The notes under the pieces: model-generated
What the model was told of the DNA's origin: nothing
Databases searched by the model: none
What the model saw: only the letters and a program-made list of their open reading frames with translations
Shown: positions 8,319 to 27,923 of the stretch, one piece after another
Layout: every line of letters starts with the position of its first letter
Numbering within the stretch: position 1 is the first letter of the stretch
Translations under genes and position numbers: made by a program
Assembly (NCBI GenBank): GCA_015296085.1
Contig: DVDT01000044.1
Location: 62,001 to 126,000 of the forward strand
DNA from: Trichormus sp. M33_DOE_039
Lineage (GTDB): Bacteria > Cyanobacteriota > Cyanobacteriia > Cyanobacteriales > Nostocaceae
DNA: 64,000 bases
Direction of reading: 5' to 3'

Positions 8319-8537
8319 ATGAAGGGCAGGGAACTGTGTAGAAAGATATTAAGCTTTTAATTTTTACACTCATCTATTAGTCTTAGCAACAATTAATAGT
8401 CAAAGCGAAAATATCTATGATGGCTTACTTTTTACTGTGTTTATCCAGAGTTCAAAAATAACATAATATTTTTGATTAGAACTTAACCCTGGGGCATAGT
8501 TATAAACAACTTATTCAAAGAAATCGAGGTTTGAAAT

Positions 8538-9308
8538 ATGGTTGCAACAATCAGAGGCACACATTTAAATATTTTAGATTTGACTAAAGCTTTTGGCGAT
8601 AAAATTGTTTTGAATACTCTAAACTTAGAGGTAAAACCAGGCGAATTTGTGGCGATTGTTGGACGCAGTGGTTGCGGGAAAAGCACTCTTTTGCGTCTAG
8701 TATCGGGATTAGATAAACCCAGTTCTGGCGGAATTTTACTAGATGGAGAACCGTTGCGTAAGCTTAGTAACTCCATCAGAGTGATGTTTCAAGATTCTCG
8801 CTTATTACCTTGGAAGCATGTTATTCAAAATGTAGGTTTAGGCTTACAGGAGAACTGGCAAGATAAAGCTTTGTGGGCATTGGAAAAAGTAGAACTCAAA
8901 GACAGAGCCGATGAATGGCCATCTGTATTGTCTGGTGGACAACGTCAACGGGTTTCACTAGCCAGAGCCTTAGTCAATCAACCACGTTTATTACTGCTTG
9001 ATGAACCCCTAGGGGCGTTGGATGCCTTAACTCGCTTAGAGATGCAGAAATTAATTGAAAACTTGTGGTTAGAGCGAGGTTTTACGGCCTTTTTAGTGAC
9101 TCATGACGTAGAAGAAGCTGTAGCACTGGCAGACAGAGTGATAGTGATTGAACATGGACGCATTGCGCTAGATTTGCCTGTGAATCTGCCACGTCCAAGA
9201 GATAGAGCGAGTGAAGCCTTCACTGATATTAGGGAAACTGTTTTAGAGCAAGTAATGAATCGCGAGGGCGATCGCAAAAATCAGAAATTATTACAGTTGA
9301 GTAACTAG
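8538..9308 (+). CDS. ssuB-like: Sulfonate/taurine-type ABC transporter ATPase (SsuB-like)
   Basis: A 256-residue importer ATPase starting at ATG 8538 behind GAGG. It has Walker [12 protein letters not shown]-loop in [12 protein letters not shown], signature [14 protein letters not shown], Walker [13 protein letters not shown] and switch His in [14 protein letters not shown] after the Q-loop is typical of SsuB/TauB/NrtD-type ATPases. It follows the permease after a 219 bp gap in which I see no other feature. It powers import through the 7500 permease. Confidence 0.9.
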
Positions 9309-21693: not shown

Positions 21694-22347
21694 CTATATG
21701 CTATTAGGAGTACCCACAACTGCACAGGGACAATTAGAGCTTATCTGTTGAATCAGGGGATGGTACACCGATTGACATCCCAAAAATAATATGTCAGCAG
21801 ATTCCATTTCCACAACTGTTTTCAGTTCTTTACTAACATTTCCAAATCGCAGATGTGATTTAAAAGAACCTTGCCACTCTTCAGCTAAATTTCTTGCTTG
21901 CCAAAGAATTCTATCGGCTTCCTGGAGCGAATTTCGTGTATTTCGTTGTACCTTTGATACAGTTTCCTGAACAGTTGGGTGTATTAATATAGATGTAGGT
22001 GATTTGGATATTTCACTGACAGGAGATTCAACAGTTGATAATTTTTTGATGATTCTCAGAGGATGAGATTTTGAATCATCATAGCTTTCTTCTACTACAT
22101 AAACAGCTTGGACTATGACTTCTTGATTAGTTGCTAATCGTGTCTGGTGTGCTATCCAAAAGGCTATGTCTAATGCAGTATGGCTATTAGGAGACGCATC
22201 ATAACCCACAATTAAATTCACTGATTTATTAATTAAACATTGCTCAGGAAAAGCTTTTGTTGGTTCTGGCAACAAGAGGATTTGTTCGATGATGTCATCT
22301 CTACCCATAGCACTTTGTAAACGGGCTAACATTGGCTTGATGTTCAC
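21694..22347 (-). CDS. Universal stress protein family, riboswitch-controlled
   Basis: A 217-residue protein with GTG start 22347 behind AGGAG. After about 40 extra N-terminal residues comes the UspA start NLIVGYDASPNSHTALDIAF. The C-terminus has ADILFLGCQSVYHPLIQQIS and CPCAVVGTPNS. The usual ATP-binding G-x2-G-x9-G(S/T) motif before the last strand is not present, so it is likely a non-ATP-binding USP. A c-di-AMP-type riboswitch precedes it on the same strand (22470-22655), with a weak terminator between, so expression should depend on that ligand. Role: stress or ion/osmotic response, inferred. Confidence 0.8.
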   Translation of the reverse strand: MNIKPMLARLQSAMGRDDIIEQILLLPEPTKAFPEQCLINKSVNLIVGYDASPNSHTALDIAFWIAHQTRLATNQEVIVQAVYVVEESYDDSKSHPLRIIKKLSTVESPVSEISKSPTSILIHPTVQETVSKVQRNTRNSLQEADRILWQARNLAEEWQGSFKSHLRFGNVSKELKTVVEMESADILFLGCQSVYHPLIQQISSNCPCAVVGTPNSI

Positions 22348-22395
22348 AGCTTTGACTTCTCCTAAACTTAACTAACAACGAATGAGAAGTAGGGT

Positions 22396-22423
22396 AAAAA
22401 CGAATAAATAACAGAATTATTCG
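22396..22423 (-). terminator. AT-rich terminator between riboswitch and USP gene
   Basis: On the minus strand CGAATAA pairs with TTATTCG around a 9-base loop, followed by TTTTTA. It ends 48 bases before the USP start. A larger hairpin (22427-22437 with 22464-22474, one mismatch) sits between it and the aptamer. Together they could form the expression platform. Confidence 0.5.
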
Positions 22424-22469
22424 CTAGGAATCCCCAATAACAACTGGTAATAAAGCCAAAGTTTTGGGG

Positions 22470-22655
22470 GTTCCTTCCATTGCCGACGGAGTTAGCTGAC
22501 GGGCTAAGACTGGAAGGTGTCTTTCTTATGAGTGTTGAGTGATACAGTAAAGATGATAATTTACACTCCAAAATAGCTCACTCTGTATAAAGATGCGCCC
22601 CACAATTTGGTTCCTCCGTTTCAAATTTAGATTGACTAAATTTAAATTAGGCGAC
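22470..22655 (-). promoter_or_regulatory. ydaO/yuaA (c-di-AMP) riboswitch upstream of the USP gene
   Basis: Read on the minus strand, the region has the characteristic aptamer blocks. CGGAGGAACCA with a short hairpin TGGGGCGCATCT comes first, then a variable stem. Next is AGCCCGTCAGCTAACTCCGTC, close to the invariant CCGTCAGCTAACCTCGT of the ydaO family, and then GGCAATGGAAGGA. A second copy with the same order is at 26180-26373. Known ydaO riboswitches bind two c-di-AMP molecules and turn expression off. Family assignment is from remembered consensus. Confidence 0.82.
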
Positions 22656-22679
22656 CCACTACAGAAACCATAATTTACT

Positions 22680-23516
22680 TTACTCTTCGTGAGCAAAATA
22701 TTGATCGAGAAAGTTTAAGGCATGATTACGAAGTTCAAAATATTCTTTTGAGTTTCGTATAGCAGCTCGGTCTCGTGGATGAGGAAATGGTACTTCTAAT
22801 ATCTCTCCAATGGTAGCTGCTGGCCCATTAGTCATTAATACGATGCGATCGGACATATAAATAGCCTCATCAACATCGTGAGTGATCATCATGACTGCTT
22901 GTCGATGATGTTCCCAAATATCTAATACTTGCCTTTGTAATTTACCTCTGGTTAAGGCATCTAATGCACCAAAAGGTTCATCCATAAGTAACATTTTGGG
23001 TCTAATTGCTAAGGCTCTAGCAATACCCACTCGCTGTTTCATACCTCCAGAAATTTCATCAGGGTATTTGTCTGCTGCCGCCGTTAAGTTTACCATTGCC
23101 AAGTGTTCGTTCACAATGCTAATTTTTTCAGCCCGATTTGCATTTTTTAACACTTCATCGACAGCTAGGCGAATATTGTCTCTAACTGTTAACCAAGGTA
23201 ACAAAGAATAATTTTGAAATATCATCATTCTTTCCGCCCCAGGTTTACGAATTTCTTTTCCATCAAGGCGTACAGACCCAGAAGTGAGTTTTTCTAAACC
23301 CGCTACAATTTTTAACAAAGTTGATTTACCACAACCAGAATGTCCAATTACGGAGATAAATTCATCTTCACCGATGGTCAAATTCACATCATTAAGTACG
23401 ATAAAGTTACCCTTATCTGGTGTCGGATAAGACTTCACTAAATTTTCAATTTCTAAAAAGTTATGTCTGGACATATTTGGTTGATGAGCCTTGACAGTTA
23501 AAGGTGTGGATTTCAT
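22680..23516 (-). CDS. Nitrate/taurine-type ABC transporter ATPase (NrtD/CynD/TauB-like)
   Basis: ATG 23516 has GGAG 8 bases upstream, and is preferred to an upstream in-frame ATG at 23594; this gives 278 residues. It shows Walker A GHSGCGKST, MIFQNYSLLPWLTV after the Q-loop, signature ISGGMKQRVGIARA, Walker B MLLMDEPFGALD and switch His in ITHDVDEA. It is the last gene of a permease, binding protein, ATPase operon led by a riboswitch. A dispersed repeat (23557-23590) lies in the gap before it. Confidence 0.9.
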   Translation of the reverse strand: MKSTPLTVKAHQPNMSRHNFLEIENLVKSYPTPDKGNFIVLNDVNLTIGEDEFISVIGHSGCGKSTLLKIVAGLEKLTSGSVRLDGKEIRKPGAERMMIFQNYSLLPWLTVRDNIRLAVDEVLKNANRAEKISIVNEHLAMVNLTAAADKYPDEISGGMKQRVGIARALAIRPKMLLMDEPFGALDALTRGKLQRQVLDIWEHHRQAVMMITHDVDEAIYMSDRIVLMTNGPAATIGEILEVPFPHPRDRAAIRNSKEYFELRNHALNFLDQYFAHEE

Positions 23517-23675
23517 GTTAAATACTCCTATAAATTGGGGAGGCAGTGGGTTGGACAGGTTTCCCGACTTGTAGCAACTGCTGTCGTTAGGCAAAGTAAA
23601 AAGTAAAAAAATTATGTTTATTTTGTCTTTTAACTTTTACTTTTAACTTTTAGCTTTTTACTTTTTTGCCTCTAG

Positions 23676-25118
23676 TTAAGATAAGAAAAAACGATTGGGT
23701 GCGTTGGCTCTAATGGCAAAACTATTTAAGTAACCAATGGGATCGCTAGGATCAAAGCCTTTTTTGTCGATGAACACTTCTGGCGGTTCAACTTTATAAT
23801 CTTCTTTAGGACATTGAATGCCCATTTCGCTGGCTATTTCCCGATATAAATCGGTTTTCCAGGCTATTGCGGCTAATTTATCAGCATCTTTAGGAAACTC
23901 TTTGATTTGTCCCCAACGGGCGGCTTGAGTCATTAACCAGATACTTCTGGATCTCCATAAAAATGTGCCGTGTTCACCTGCTTCTTGGGGTACATTTTGG
24001 GGAACATCAAAGAAAATTGTGGTGTCTGTGGCTGTGATGGTGCGGTCTTTGCCGTCAAAACCGCCATAGTTATAATTACCAATAATTCCAGGTGAAGTAA
24101 ATTTACTGGTTGGTGCGTTTGGATTTTTGGGTTTTGCACCTGTAAAGGAACGGTCTGTAAGTAGTTCGGCGACTTCTTGGCGGTTTTCAGGACGGCTGCA
24201 ATACTGACAAGCTTCTATCATGGCTTTTACTAGAGACCGATAGGTTTTGGGATATTTTTCAATAAAGGATTCCATCACTCCTAATAACCTATCTGGGTGT
24301 CCTAACCAAACTTCTTTTCCTTGAGCAAAGGTGAAACCGATATTTTCATTACCTGTAATGGCTCTAGTGTTCCAGGGTTCTGCTACCATGTAGGCTTGCA
24401 TTGCGCCAATCCTGACGTTTGTTACCATCTGCGGGGGTGGAACTATGATGACGCGAAATTCTTTGAGAGGATCGACTCCAGCAGCAGCAGATACGTAACG
24501 CACAAAGTATTCGTAAATCGCGGAACTTAAAACTACAGCCCAGACTTTGTTTTCTGGTGCTTGTTTGGCAAAGTAGGCTCTAAAATCTTTGCCGAAGGCT
24601 TCTAATGCACCATCGCCATATTGTTGTTGATATTCATACCAGGGACGTAAGCCAAAATCCCACATGGCTTTGTTCATGGTCATGGCGTTCCCGTGGTGGT
24701 GAATGGTCATGGCTGCACATAGAGGGGCGTGGCGTGCGCCTTCTGCACCGATACGGGCGTTGGTGACTGCACCGGAAACGACAGGGGACGCATCTAGGCG
24801 ACCAAATATTAAGCCATCACGGGAGTTAGCCCAACTGGCTTCACGGTTGAGTTGGACGTTCAAGCCATATTTGCGAAAGAAGCCTTTTTTCCAGGCGATC
24901 GCAAATGGCGCACAATCATTAACAGGAACATATCCGACAATTAAATCGGGTTTTTCTAGGTCTTGGGATCTGACTACTGGTTGCACTGCTAAGGCTTCTT
25001 CGGTCAGCCCTTTGGCGGATTTGTCTGCTGATATGGCACAGGAGGATAGGGTAATACCGGCGGTTGTTGCTCCTATGCTTTTGATAAAGTCTCGTCTTGT
25101 CCAGTTAGAGTTACTCAT
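23676..25118 (-). CDS. ABC transporter substrate-binding lipoprotein (NrtA/CmpA-like)
   Basis: A 480-residue binding protein with a twin-arginine signal (TRRDFIKSIG) and lipobox LSSC (Cys27), so probably Tat-exported and lipid-anchored. The body resembles the NrtA/CmpA/NasF-type family: VGYVPVNDCAPFAIAWKKGF, SWANSRDGLIFGRLDAS and MTIHHHGNAMTMNKAMWD. The ligand could be nitrate, bicarbonate, cyanate or an organic compound; the sequence does not decide. It is encoded between the permease and ATPase genes on the minus strand. Confidence 0.85.
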   Translation of the reverse strand: MSNSNWTRRDFIKSIGATTAGITLSSCAISADKSAKGLTEEALAVQPVVRSQDLEKPDLIVGYVPVNDCAPFAIAWKKGFFRKYGLNVQLNREASWANSRDGLIFGRLDASPVVSGAVTNARIGAEGARHAPLCAAMTIHHHGNAMTMNKAMWDFGLRPWYEYQQQYGDGALEAFGKDFRAYFAKQAPENKVWAVVLSSAIYEYFVRYVSAAAGVDPLKEFRVIIVPPPQMVTNVRIGAMQAYMVAEPWNTRAITGNENIGFTFAQGKEVWLGHPDRLLGVMESFIEKYPKTYRSLVKAMIEACQYCSRPENRQEVAELLTDRSFTGAKPKNPNAPTSKFTSPGIIGNYNYGGFDGKDRTITATDTTIFFDVPQNVPQEAGEHGTFLWRSRSIWLMTQAARWGQIKEFPKDADKLAAIAWKTDLYREIASEMGIQCPKEDYKVEPPEVFIDKKGFDPSDPIGYLNSFAIRANAPNRFFLS

Positions 25119-25231
25119 GTGGAGTTAAATGGCGTGATTATTTGGCGCATACTGCAAGTAGAACCCGCAGGATAGGCGCAAAGGCACAAAGTTTCTATTG
25201 TGTCTTGATGTTTTATGTGAGTGAGATTTTT

Positions 25232-26083
25232 TTATTTAGAAGCTATTGGCCGATGGGTAACTAGTTCTTGCAGCTTGCCGACGGCGAAGTCTAGGATGAG
25301 TCCAGTTAAGCCAATCACAAACACGGCTAGAAAGACTGAACTAAGGTTTAAACGACTCCATTCGTCCCAAACAAAGAAGCCTATGCCGATACCACCAGTG
25401 AGCATTTCTACTGCAACTATGACTAGCCATGCAATTCCTAAACTGATTCTTAAGCCTGTAAAAATGTATGGTAAGCTGGCAGGCCAAATAATTTTGGTAA
25501 TTCGTCGCCAATGGGGCATTTCTAGCACTTGGGCGACATCTATATAATCTTTGGGAACGCTGGCAACTCCTAGGGCAGTGTTAATAATAGTCGGCCATAG
25601 AGAGGTGATGAAAATGACAAAAATTGCGGAAGGATCGGCTAAGTTGAAAATAGCTAAGGCTATAGGTAGCCAAGCTAAGGGTGATACGGGTTTAAAAATT
25701 TGAATGATGGGATTGAATGCTAGCATGGCGGGTCTAGACATTCCAATCAAGAACCCTACAGGAATTGCTACCACTGCACCCAAGAAAAAACCTATTAGTA
25801 CCCGTCGTAAGCTGGCTATTAATAACCAACCAATCCCTAAATTGCCAGGACCTCTTTGATAAAACGGGTTCAGTATATAGTCTAAATTGGCGGCTAGGGC
25901 TTCGGGTGGTGTGGGCATTAGCTCATGATTAACTAATGCTACCAACCACCAAATTAATATAATGCCTAAGAAACCTATAATTGGTAGTATGACTACATCC
26001 CTCATAATTATAGGTTTGGTCTTTTTCCAGGCAGCTTGACTGACAACAGCGGCGATCGCTGCTAAATTCAATTGCAGTATCAT
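25232..26083 (-). CDS. ABC transporter permease (NrtB/CynB-like)
   Basis: A 283-residue membrane protein with about six hydrophobic segments and an EAA-type coupling loop (DVAQVLEMPHWRRITKIIWP). IFKPVSPLAWLPIALAIF and GGIGIGFFVWDEW match nitrate/cyanate-type permeases. It is the first gene of the operon. The leader upstream carries a c-di-AMP-type riboswitch ending in a strong terminator 33 bases before the ATG. Confidence 0.88.
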   Translation of the reverse strand: MILQLNLAAIAAVVSQAAWKKTKPIIMRDVVILPIIGFLGIILIWWLVALVNHELMPTPPEALAANLDYILNPFYQRGPGNLGIGWLLIASLRRVLIGFFLGAVVAIPVGFLIGMSRPAMLAFNPIIQIFKPVSPLAWLPIALAIFNLADPSAIFVIFITSLWPTIINTALGVASVPKDYIDVAQVLEMPHWRRITKIIWPASLPYIFTGLRISLGIAWLVIVAVEMLTGGIGIGFFVWDEWSRLNLSSVFLAVFVIGLTGLILDFAVGKLQELVTHRPIASK

Positions 26084-26116
26084 AGGTGCAACCTCAACAG
26101 AGTTAAGTGCAGGTAC

Positions 26117-26144
26117 AAAAAAAACCGAGCAGTACCAGCCTCGG
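26117..26144 (-). terminator. Intrinsic terminator between riboswitch and permease gene
   Basis: On the minus strand CCGAG-(10 bases)-CTCGG is followed directly by eight T residues. It lies 33 bases before the permease ATG (26083). Its place just after the aptamer makes it the natural expression platform for transcription attenuation. Confidence 0.85.
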
Positions 26145-26179
26145 ACACTGATGAGAGCTAAACATTAAAAAATGCTGCC

Positions 26180-26373
26180 TCTTCAGTCTCCTCTCAATGC
26201 CTACGAAGTTAGCTGACGGGCTAGGGCTGAGAGTTGCCCTTCTTACGAGAGTTTTGAGGATGAGTTAATTTTTGTCTTAACCCCTACCTTTTGAGTGATT
26301 ACTCTCTGCAAGATTCGCCCCAAAAATGGTTCCTCCGCTCCAACTTTTATATGCGTTTAGTTGGATTAGGCTG
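26180..26373 (-). promoter_or_regulatory. ydaO/yuaA (c-di-AMP) riboswitch upstream of the ABC transporter operon
   Basis: The minus strand reads GCGGAGGAACCATTTTTGG, then GGGGCGAATCTTGCAGAGAG, a variable arm, then AGCCCGTCAGCTAACTTCG and TAGGCATTGAGAGGAG. These blocks and their order match the ydaO family (GGGGCGAAT and CCGTCAGCTAACCTCGT cores), and the region is collinear with the copy at 22470-22655. Both copies begin with GCCTAAT and a small stem-loop before the CGGAGG block. A T8 terminator follows at 26117-26144, fitting an OFF switch. Confidence 0.85.
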
Positions 26374-26635
26374 ACTTACTCATATATAATAATTGGTAGT
26401 GAAAATTGTATCATCTTTCTTCGACAAAGGCAAGCTCTAAATTATAAATGTTGTTTATTTCCAGACAGATTGACTAAGTTTTGTGCGATCGCTCAATGTT
26501 ATTGCGTAAATGTGACTTTTAGTTAGAGTCTACAGTTAAAACCAGAAATTGTCTGTAATCAATAGTTGTATTATTCAACAATGAGTTAAGATAGGAGGCT
26601 TATTAATATATCTCATGGGGTAGATGAAATATTTC

Positions 26636-26720: not shown

Positions 26721-27923
26721 ATGGATTTTAGTCAACTACTGGCTGAAAACACTCACAGTATCATCGAAAAGTGGATTATTAAAGTCCGTAATGATCGCCA
26801 CATAGAAAGTGCTGATGATTTATCCTACACAGCAATTAAAAACCATATTCCTGATGTTTTTCAGGCGATGATCACGGTTTTGTCACCTACTCAGGAAGGT
26901 GATATTAAATCGATAGTGACAGCTAGTTGGCAGCATGGATTACTGCGTGCTGAACAAGGCTTTGATCCATCCGAAATAGCCCGTGAATACTGTCTACTGA
27001 GAACAGTTATATTTGATACGATAGAGGGAGAATTATCGCAGGCTACACCAGTAGAAATTATTCGTTATATGCGTTTAATTGATGCGGTGATTGATGAGGC
27101 GATCGCCCGCTGTTTTAATAGTTATGTGGGAGAACGCTTGCGGGAATTACAAAATTTGCAAACTGCTTTAACTCTCCATAATGAAGAATTGACGCGTTTA
27201 ATTAATGTCAACCAAGATAAGCTTTCAGAACTTGCGCACGAACTTAAACATCCTTTGACAGCAATTATTGGTTATTCAGATTTATTTTTAAAACAACAAC
27301 GACGAGACATTACTCAAAAAGATAGCTACGTCAATTTAAACCATATTGAACGTGTACTCCGCAATGGTAGACATTTATTGCGGCTAATTAATAATGTGTT
27401 AGAACTTTCACGATATGAAGCAGGTAAACTGCAACTCCAACCTGAACCGATTAACGTCAAAGAATTAATTAACAATGTCTGCGAGATGTTAGAACCACTA
27501 GCAGCAGAGAAGAATTTACAAATGATCTTTAACAGCGATCGCGTACCTCTTGAGGTAATCACAGATGGCTTTCAATTACAACAGATTGTAATCAATCTTG
27601 TGAGCAATGCCATCCGCTACACGGACTCCGGCACTGTTAGTATAGCGTGTCAGGTAATGAATGATGACACATGGGCGATCGCCGTTGCTGATACGGGGAT
27701 TGGTATTGCACCCAAAGACCAAAGCCAAATATTTGAGCCTTATTTTCGTGTCACTTCCGAAAAACGTCCCCGTCTTCCCGACAGCACAGGCTTAGGATTA
27801 GCAATAGTCGCGCGGTTAGTCAAACTACTAAAAGGTGAAATTAATCTAGTGTCTCAAGAGGGTGTTGGCTCTAAGTTCACTGTGACTTTACCATTAGATG
27901 TGACAAAAGAAACCAGTGGCTAG
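26721..27923 (+). CDS. Sensor histidine kinase with RsbRD-type N-terminal domain
   Basis: A 400-residue soluble kinase. Residues 1-135 match the RsbRD_N fold (start LLAENTHSIIEKWI, later SWQHGLLRAEQGF and IIRYMRLIDAVIDEAI), a domain of stressosome proteins. A short coiled coil precedes the HisKA H-box ELAHELKHPLTAIIGYS (His173). The ATPase has N-box NLVSNAIRYT, VADTGIGI and GLGLAI. No receiver or membrane segment is present, and no response regulator gene is adjacent. The input is probably cytoplasmic. Confidence 0.88.
   Translation: MDFSQLLAENTHSIIEKWIIKVRNDRHIESADDLSYTAIKNHIPDVFQAMITVLSPTQEGDIKSIVTASWQHGLLRAEQGFDPSEIAREYCLLRTVIFDTIEGELSQATPVEIIRYMRLIDAVIDEAIARCFNSYVGERLRELQNLQTALTLHNEELTRLINVNQDKLSELAHELKHPLTAIIGYSDLFLKQQRRDITQKDSYVNLNHIERVLRNGRHLLRLINNVLELSRYEAGKLQLQPEPINVKELINNVCEMLEPLAAEKNLQMIFNSDRVPLEVITDGFQLQQIVINLVSNAIRYTDSGTVSIACQVMNDDTWAIAVADTGIGIAPKDQSQIFEPYFRVTSEKRPRLPDSTGLGLAIVARLVKLLKGEINLVSQEGVGSKFTVTLPLDVTKETSG

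What the first reader, a model, noticed from the sequence alone, without database searches (positions are those of the whole stretch)
22470..26373. Two c-di-AMP riboswitches of the same type in one 4 kb minus-strand stretch
Both minus-strand leaders (22470-22655 and 26180-26373) show the same block order: GCCTAAT, small stem-loop, CGGAGGAACCA, GGGGCG(A/C)ATCT, then CCGTCAGCTAAC(T) and GTAGGC or GTCGGC. That is the ydaO/yuaA signature. Each is followed by a terminator-like hairpin (T8 at 26117; T5 at 22396). One controls an NrtABD-type transporter operon, the other a universal stress protein. ydaO is known from Gram-positives and cyanobacteria; joint control of a stress protein and an anion-type transporter suggests a c-di-AMP regulon linking ion or osmotic state to uptake.
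Basis: partly seen in the sequence, partly recalled or inferred. Interest (0 to 1): 0.78.

Follow-up and report, generated by a model that had tools for sequence, protein, structure and literature searches.

The report
Paired c-di-AMP riboswitches in Nostocaceae
Two RNA switches of a class known to sense the signal molecule c-di-AMP sit in front of a transporter operon and the stress-protein gene next to it in a filamentous cyanobacterium; the switch class is known, but the paired layout recurs in many relatives and points to a regulatory unit that can be tested.

Summary
Both leaders match Rfam RF00379 above its gathering score (79.6 and 53 bits; threshold 38), and they are the only hits found in the 7.0 Mb genome. 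One precedes an NrtBAD-type ABC operon, the other a universal stress protein (USP) gene. The layout recurs: motif search found aptamer 1 in 77 and aptamer 2 in 65 of 81 loci. Four unlinked usp genes kept an aptamer. In five sampled loci of other families usp follows nrtD or an nrtD fragment with no aptamer seen between, so the second switch may be a Nostocaceae addition. Two corrections: the hairpins called terminators exist in the window, but their stems are poorly conserved, unlike Shine-Dalgarno pairings and one covarying hairpin; termination is not excluded. The transporter is not the genome's nitrate permease; separate NrtA and CmpA relatives exist. Ligand binding, direction of control and substrate are inferred or open. 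The class and its use in cyanobacteria are known; I found no paper on this nrtBAD/usp pair, but the founding papers are not held.

The parts
26183..26382 (-). c-di-AMP riboswitch aptamer 1 (RF00379), upstream of nrtB; P1 strands GCC 26371-26369 and GGC 26201-26199
   Evidence: 79.6 bits, GA 38; upstream of nrtB in 40 of 40 named genomes that I picked from the 80 loci
26405..26433 (-). promoter-like site of aptamer 1 (TTGCCT-17-TACAAT, TG before the second hexamer)
   Evidence: consensus scan (13 sites found against 11.5 expected, so weak by itself) and a similar T/A block upstream of P1 in many relatives, by eye; inferred
26147..26187 (-). hairpin A directly behind aptamer 1 (ACTGAAGAG.. / ..CTCTCATCAGT); its 3' strand is also the anti-SD
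   Evidence: 95.3% of cells paired, 5 pairs with changes on both sides (21 of 500 shuffles reach 5), covariation score 0.157 reached by 0 of 500 shuffles
26091..26157 (-). anti-SD (26157-26148) and nrtB Shine-Dalgarno region CTGTTGAGGT (26100-26091); excludes hairpin A
   Evidence: 98.2% of cells paired over 67 sequences but no change on both sides
26117..26144 (-). terminator-like CCGAG/CTCGG hairpin plus T8 behind aptamer 1
   Evidence: present in the window; stem poorly conserved (66.2% of cells)
25232..26083 (-). nrtB-like permease
   Evidence: TIGR01183 230.7 bits, cut-off 209.05
23676..25118 (-). NrtA-like substrate-binding protein
   Evidence: PF13379 210.1 bits; best PDB matches are NrtC/CmpC C-terminal domains
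22680..23594 (-). nrtD-like ATPase
   Evidence: TIGR01184 366.9 bits, cut-off 291.8
22653..22679 (-). 27-base gap between the nrtD stop and aptamer 2, with a -10-like TAT block (TATGGT 22672-22667; often TATTAT or TATCAT in relatives)
   Evidence: nrtD stop to GGAGGAACC core is 61-65 bases in 62 of 65 loci; a similar block precedes 4 usp aptamers unlinked from nrtD; promoter role inferred
22469..22655 (-). c-di-AMP riboswitch aptamer 2 (RF00379), upstream of usp; P1 strands GCC 22652-22650 and GGC 22484-22482
   Evidence: 53.0 bits, GA 38; between nrtD and usp in 32 of 40 named genomes by covariance model
22356..22389 (-). anti-SD CTTCTC (22389-22384) and usp Shine-Dalgarno GAGAAG (22361-22356)
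   Evidence: helix TTCTC/GAGAA has consensus pairing probability 1.00 over 64 platforms; C(C/T)TCTC..GAGA(A/G)G found in 61 of 64, 58 of them CTTCTC/GAGAAG and one compensatory CCTCTC/GAGAGG
22396..22423 (-). CGAATAA/TTATTCG hairpin plus T5 behind aptamer 2
   Evidence: present in the window; a hairpin plus T run at this place in 7 of 64 platforms
21694..22347 (-). universal stress protein (USP)-like gene, 217 aa, GTG start
   Evidence: PF00582 29.7 bits, cut-off 24; AlphaFold model (mean pLDDT 73.1) matches USP structures first

Best explanation
Both leaders are c-di-AMP riboswitches of the ydaO/yuaA class (RF00379). Aptamer 1 starts the mRNA of an NrtBAD-type ABC importer; aptamer 2 sits 27 bases behind nrtD and starts the mRNA of a USP gene, most likely from its own promoter whose -10 lies in that gap. 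Any transcript that reads through from nrtD must also pass aptamer 2. Binding of c-di-AMP most likely shuts both genes off (precedent of the class), so that transporter and USP are made together when c-di-AMP falls. In this lineage the conserved platforms look more like Shine-Dalgarno sequestration than like a plain terminator: an anti-SD strand can pair with the start region of nrtB or with a covarying hairpin right behind P1. The USP may act on the transporter, as proposed for other USPs. Supported by computation: class membership, conservation, covarying hairpin, gene layout. Inferred: ligand binding, promoter of aptamer 2, off direction, translational level, role of the USP, substrate.
For: RF00379 scores; only two hits in the genome and one DAC cyclase domain. 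RF00379 is over cut-off in 178 of 291 genomes drawn from the order and 73 of 80 drawn from the family. Layout: aptamer 1 in 40 of 40 and aptamer 2 in 32 of 40 named genomes by covariance model (40 picked from the 80 loci); by motif search 77 and 65 of 81 loci, one more aptamer 2 (L067) seen by eye. Of 69 loci with usp behind nrtD, 64 have aptamer 2 by motif, 65 with L067; of 10 loci with no usp hit there and enough sequence, none has it within 700 bases of nrtD. Four usp genes unlinked from nrtBAD keep an aptamer and an upstream TAT...AG(T/C)GGG block; L155 still carries, by eye, a piece of the nrtD end. Hairpin A covaries; SD pairings conserved. Off direction: published for the B. thuringiensis kdp switch (PMC6488665, passages).
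Against: Forcing the aptamer changed mean SD accessibility hardly at all (0.203 to 0.216 for 76 first, 0.100 to 0.101 for 63 second leaders). In the window itself it rose (0.19 to 0.36 and 0.02 to 0.10), which would fit an on rather than an off switch; of the 76 first leaders 11 rose and 5 fell by more than 0.1. The nrtB SD helix shows no change on both sides. Terminator-like hairpins occur in 31 of 77 and 35 of 64 platforms against 9 of 40 and 7 of 40 shuffled ones, and L089 and L093 have a hairpin plus T4 at the place of the window's T5 hairpin, so termination may be the main step. The promoter of aptamer 2 rests on a short block that I cannot recognise in the two Sphaerospermopsis loci (L099, L113). 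Four loci have usp behind nrtD but no aptamer 2 found. L072 lacks the usp anti-SD, and L082 and L083 have it shifted. The 80 loci are the best 80 of 257 by match, so counts lean to close relatives.
Confidence: 0.72

Rival explanations
1. Serial switches on one mRNA: aptamer 2 has no promoter of its own and gates read-through from nrtBAD, so usp is controlled twice and responds more steeply than the transporter.
For: Only 27 bases lie between the nrtD stop and P1, and the stop-to-core distance is 61-65 bases in 62 of 65 loci. In sampled loci of other families usp follows nrtD closely with no aptamer seen between (L177, L189, L197, L200), so co-transcription may be the ancestral state. A similar layout, aptamer-CitMHS-aptamer-nrtBA, is in L182.
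Against: The gap carries a -10-like block, and a similar block precedes 4 usp aptamers that are unlinked from nrtD, where read-through from nrtD is not possible.
Confidence: 0.25
2. Both switches act by intrinsic termination, as in Bacillus, and the SD pairings are incidental.
For: T8 and T5 hairpins in the window; terminator-like hairpins above shuffled controls in both platforms; T run of 5 or more between the GTAC boxes in 45 of 77 first leaders; hairpin plus T4 at the place of the T5 hairpin in L089 and L093.
Against: The stem behind aptamer 1 is poorly conserved; a hairpin plus T run at the place of the T5 hairpin was found in 7 of 64 platforms; SD pairings are conserved; the alternative terminator T2 shows no excess pairing over shuffles.
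Confidence: 0.37
3. The second aptamer is decaying and no longer functional in this lineage; its lower score reflects that.
For: 53 bits against 79.6; one mismatch in P1 (GCCT / CGGC); in the congener L183 a long ORF interrupts the variable arm and the core reads GGAGAAACC; in L062 about 200 bases lie extra in the same arm.
Against: The window's own core blocks are intact: CCGTCAGCTAACTCCGTCGGCAATGG is shared with 21 other loci and GGGGCGCATC with five others. The arm varies in length in the other members too (core to core 65-320 bases).
Confidence: 0.1

Closest known systems
c-di-AMP riboswitch, ydaO/yuaA leader (Rfam RF00379; Nelson et al. 2013, not held, known through citing papers)
   Same: Whole covariance model matched by both leaders above gathering; leader position; ion and osmotic genes among the targets, as cited for cyanobacteria in PMC5986932 (passages).
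   Different: Conserved behind the aptamers here are SD/anti-SD pairings and a covarying hairpin rather than a conserved terminator stem; a very variable arm (core to core 65-320 bases in aptamer 2, 69-250 in aptamer 1).
slr0753 c-di-AMP riboswitch of Synechocystis (Mantovani et al. 2022, not held; seen in PMC10117731, passage)
   Same: Same class, in a cyanobacterium, on a putative ion transporter gene. CitMHS-family genes are also targets in the order; that Slr0753 is of this family is my recall.
   Different: Targets in the window are nrtBAD and usp, not a CitMHS gene.
Tandem c-di-AMP riboswitch doublets (PMC9481103, passages: 77 doublets)
   Same: Two aptamers of the same class close together.
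   Different: As I read those passages, doublets share one leader; here the two lie about 3.7 kb apart in front of different genes. L163 looks like an ordinary doublet.
TeaD of Halomonas elongata (USP beside the ectoine transporter TeaABC)
   Same: USP gene next to a transporter operon; best Foldseek match of the model (3hgm, E 2.9e-6); PMC5549992 says there is evidence that TeaD may regulate TeaABC (passage).
   Different: 13% identity, and other USPs match nearly as well, so the rank is not specific; TRAP, not ABC, transporter; no riboswitch there that I know of (recall).

Membership tests
c-di-AMP riboswitch RF00379 | covariance model score at or above the gathering score | tested here: met
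   79.6 and 53.0 bits, gathering 38
c-di-AMP riboswitch RF00379 | leader position upstream of a gene on the same strand | tested here: met
   nrtB and usp follow on the minus strand
c-di-AMP riboswitch RF00379 | binds c-di-AMP | not testable with these tools
   needs in-line probing, SHAPE or ITC
c-di-AMP riboswitch RF00379 | genome encodes a c-di-AMP cyclase | tested here: met
   one DAC domain, PF02457, 127.1 bits, cut-off 27
c-di-AMP riboswitch RF00379 | ligand-controlled expression platform (off switch) | tested here: inconclusive
nitrate ABC transporter (NrtABCD) | permease and ATPase models TIGR01183, TIGR01184 over cut-off | tested here: met
   230.7 against 209.05 and 366.9 against 291.8 bits
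nitrate ABC transporter (NrtABCD) | NrtA orthologue as binding protein | tested here: not met
   27% identity to L214, which is the close match of solved NrtA 2g29 in this genome
nitrate ABC transporter (NrtABCD) | NrtC (ATPase fused to an NrtA-like domain) in the operon | tested here: not met
   no such ORF between 21694 and 26083
bicarbonate transporter (CmpABCD) | CmpA orthologue | tested here: not met
   28% identity to L213, the close match of 2i48
universal stress protein PF00582 | Pfam score over cut-off | tested here: met
   29.7 against 24 bits; but no hit at E 0.001 for the L119 and L132 relatives
universal stress protein PF00582 | USP fold | tested here: met
   AlphaFold model pLDDT 73.1, residues 89-135 below 50; first Foldseek ranks are USPs, E 2.9e-6, photolyases from rank 28
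universal stress protein, ATP-binding type | G-2x-G-9x-G(S/T) motif (recalled) | tested here: not met
   not seen by eye in the 17 aligned relatives

The most novel reading that the evidence does not exclude
An ancestral one-switch operon (nrtBAD-usp) was split in Nostocaceae into two separately started, separately c-di-AMP-sensing units that still lie head to tail, so that the cell can set transporter and USP at different c-di-AMP thresholds. The USP acts on the transporter (TeaD-like), and at least the first switch works by translational SD sequestration, a platform that I do not know for this class.
Probability: 0.2. Interest if true: 0.6.

Novelty: new member of a known kind. Interest (0 to 1): 0.42.

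Why it matters
Roles of c-di-AMP in cyanobacteria are still being worked out. A recurring pair of switches on one transporter and one USP gives two directly testable targets in Nostoc/Anabaena-type cyanobacteria, and natural variants (one switch only, usp unlinked, second aptamer interrupted) serve as comparisons. It also ties an uncharacterised NrtBAD-type transporter to osmotic/ionic signalling, and the conserved SD pairings raise the question whether cyanobacterial c-di-AMP switches act on translation.

Tried and rejected
Considered and rejected or left open. (1) Chance or wrong class: rejected. (2) Aptamer 2 as a recent copy of aptamer 1: its P1 flank (GGCAATGGAAGGAAC) differs from the GGCATTGAGAGGAGAC-like flank of most nrt, cit and SPS aptamers printed; no tree was built. 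(3) Terminator T2 (CCGA/TCGG): 86.5% of cells paired but not above shuffles. (4) Forced-aptamer folding to get the direction of control: hardly any effect on average. (5) AATGGAAG pairing with CTTCTCATT behind aptamer 2: little variation in the rows seen, no covariation seen by eye, left open. (6) My first idea that the gap is too short for a promoter was dropped. (7) A first motif count with too large a minimum spacing gave 74 and 21 of 81; corrected. (9) Literature: (ydaO + Nostoc) 0 papers; in the listings I recognised no paper on an nrtBAD or usp target, but I did not open most of them. Nelson 2013 and Block 2010 are not held and a guessed DOI for Mantovani 2022 was not held, so prior mention in their text or supplements cannot be excluded.

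Rows dropped or unseen: alignment A1 holds 67 of the 73 distinct first-leader platforms listed; L120, L121, L134, L137, L139, L140 were left out by hand. In one search platforms with a different strand before the T run (AGTTAATGT and the like) occur, and I take these to be among the six left out, so the omission may raise the pairing percentages. One search used 74 first and 64 second platforms; one search used 76 and 63. The printed platforms were cut in the middle (part of the rows not seen). The motif search looked only 700 bases beyond nrtD where no usp was found. The four loci in which it missed aptamer 1 (L073, L125, L136, L141) were not followed up. L164 was a useless fetch and dropped. 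Of the order-level places, 19 usable ones were picked mostly from high scores and 20 from further down the list; neither is a random sample.
Full report
What was checked. The window is 64 kb of a 7.02 Mb genome in 116 contigs. Named relatives of the binding protein are mostly Nostoc, Anabaena and other Nostocales, so the source is a filamentous cyanobacterium near Nostoc; the nearest named locus by protein identity is Nostoc sp. CMAA1605 (L062, 90%). Rfam 15 finds RF00379 twice, at 26382-26183 and 22647-22469 on the minus strand, at 79.6 and 53.0 bits against a gathering score of 38, and the genome search lists no other place.

Genes. Behind aptamer 1 lie an NrtB-like permease, an NrtA-like binding protein and an NrtD-like ATPase. 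Behind aptamer 2 lies a 217-aa USP-like protein; its AlphaFold model has mean pLDDT 73.1 with a poor stretch at 89-135 and matches USP structures first, TeaD of Halomonas at the top (13% identity, so not specific). The ATP motif that I recall for USPs is not seen by eye in 17 relatives. The genome has separate genes that are close relatives of the solved NrtA (L214, E 1.6e-169) and CmpA (L213, E 1.9e-186); the window's binding protein is 27 and 28% identical to them and closest in the PDB to the C-terminal domains of CmpC/NrtC. In the alignment it differs at places that I recall as nitrate contacts in NrtA (a His and a Lys replaced, residue roles recalled). Its substrate is unknown.

Distribution. 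RF00379 is over its cut-off in 178 of 291 genomes drawn from the order and in 73 of 80 drawn from the family; both searches used stricter filters that lose weak matches. In 40 named genomes that I picked from the 80 loci, 40 have aptamer 1 upstream of nrtB and 32 have aptamer 2 between nrtD and usp; L062, counted as lacking it there, has it with about 200 extra bases in the variable arm. A motif search over the window and 80 named loci finds aptamer 1 in 77 and aptamer 2 in 65 of 81; one more, L067, was seen by eye. Of 69 loci with usp behind nrtD, 64 have aptamer 2 by motif (65 with L067); the four without are L119, L124, L129 (Fischerella/Westiellopsis) and L138 (Chlorogloeopsis). Of the 12 loci with no usp hit there, L069 (which has the aptamer) and L073 end soon after nrtD; none of the other 10 has aptamer 2 within 700 bases. 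The 80 loci are the best 80 of 257, so the counts lean to close relatives.

Is aptamer 2 inside the operon? The nrtD stop is 27 bases before P1 in the window, and the stop-to-core distance is 61-65 bases in 62 of 65 loci. My first reading was that there is no room for a promoter. The gap, however, often holds a -10-like TAT(T/C)AT block followed by a T run and AGTGGG, and four loci where usp lies away from nrtBAD keep the aptamer and a similar block; in L155 a piece of the nrtD end seems still attached, by eye. I cannot recognise the block in the two Sphaerospermopsis loci (L099, L113), where extra sequence separates nrtD and aptamer 2. I conclude that aptamer 2 most likely starts its own mRNA, and that read-through from nrtD, if any, must also pass it.

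Wider regulon. Of 39 places sampled from other families of the order, 19 have RF00379 in front of nrtB, counting the second aptamers of L182 and L200 (L171 by covariance model only). In five (L177, L189, L197, L198, L200) a usp (42-46% identical) lies close behind nrtD, or in L198 behind an nrtD fragment, with no aptamer seen between; CitMHS-type genes recur. In Nostocaceae some further aptamers precede a glycosyltransferase (L143, L148, L153), of which L143 is a close relative of Tll1590 (that Tll1590 is a sucrose-phosphate synthase is recalled). This fits the published view that cyanobacterial c-di-AMP riboswitches control osmoprotectant genes (Nelson 2013 as cited in PMC5986932 and PMC4284465, passages) and slr0753, a putative chloride efflux gene (PMC10117731, passage). 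A simple history is one switch for nrtBAD-usp, with a second switch and promoter added in Nostocaceae; no tree was built to test it.

Expression platforms. The alignment of about 125 bases behind aptamer 1 has a mean column identity of 81% in 67 sequences. Hairpin A, right behind P1, is paired in 95.3% of 984 cells; five pairs change on both sides (21 of 500 shuffles reach five) and no shuffle reaches its covariation score (shuffles do not remove relatedness). Its 3' strand is complementary to the nrtB SD region in 98.2% of cells, without any change on both sides. A GGTAC/GTACC stem is paired in 98.9%. The window's terminator stem is paired in only 66.2%, and an alternative terminator shows no excess over shuffles. 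Behind aptamer 2, a helix that covers the SD has consensus probability 1.00 over 64 platforms; the anti-SD and SD hexamers are found in 61 of 64, one of them a compensatory variant (L132), while L072 lacks the anti-SD and L082 and L083 have it shifted. A hairpin plus T run at the place of the window's T5 hairpin was found in 7 of 64, L089 and L093 with the same tail. Against a purely translational reading, terminator-like hairpins anywhere in the platform occur in 31 of 77 first and 35 of 64 second leaders against 9 of 40 and 7 of 40 shuffled ones. Forcing the aptamer to fold changed mean SD accessibility hardly at all, and in the window itself it rose (0.19 to 0.36 and 0.02 to 0.10). The level and direction of control are open.

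Direction. The member studied in PMC6488665 (passages), kdp of B. thuringiensis, is an off switch by termination. I assign the same direction here by precedent only. A USP beside a transporter has precedents as a regulator: PMC5549992 (passage) cites evidence that TeaD may regulate TeaABC. Whether the present USP does so is a guess.

Novelty. The riboswitch class, its presence in cyanobacteria and tandem c-di-AMP doublets (77 in PMC9481103, passages) are known. The contiguous-riboswitch survey PMC12452182 counts only pairs in one intergenic region (passages). In the listings of searches I recognised no paper on the nrtBAD/usp pair, but the two founding papers are not held. I therefore file it as a new member of a known kind with an interesting, recurring layout.

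Noticed in passing
L183 718-2229 minus (unnamed congener G094): A 503-aa ORF that looks like tnpB (named from recall of such sequences, no family search) lies inside the variable arm of aptamer 2, whose core there reads GGAGAAACC: a natural interruption of the second switch.
   Followed up: partly
L062 about 8440-8740: About 200 extra bases with short repeats in the same variable arm; core to core length of aptamer 2 ranges from 65 to 320 bases over 65 loci.
   Followed up: partly
L127 2900-3067 and L131 4029-4211 (minus), beside aptamer 1 on plus: A further RF00379 aptamer on the opposite strand, back to back with aptamer 1.
   Followed up: no
L163 345-960; L182 327-2472; L200 257-2361: Doublets in other families: two aptamers in front of nrtB; aptamer-CitMHS-aptamer-nrtBA; two aptamers about 2 kb apart with the same short core segments and arm length.
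   Followed up: partly
L157, L158, L159 (about 300-500): High-scoring aptamers (about 82 bits) with no long ORF close behind on the same strand; only small ones (L157 518-769, 83 aa, and 859-1101, 80 aa; L158 787-1101, 104 aa).
   Followed up: partly
window 26721-27923 plus: Histidine kinase with an RsbRD_N domain, divergent from the nrtBAD operon.
   Followed up: no
L212 (G000 contig 105): A further NrtA-like paralogue in the own genome with one in-frame TAG in the match.
   Followed up: no
L185 2923-4212 minus (unnamed congener G270): RF00379 in front of a 429-aa glycosyltransferase-like ORF, resembling by eye the sucrose-phosphate-synthase-like targets elsewhere in the family.
   Followed up: partly
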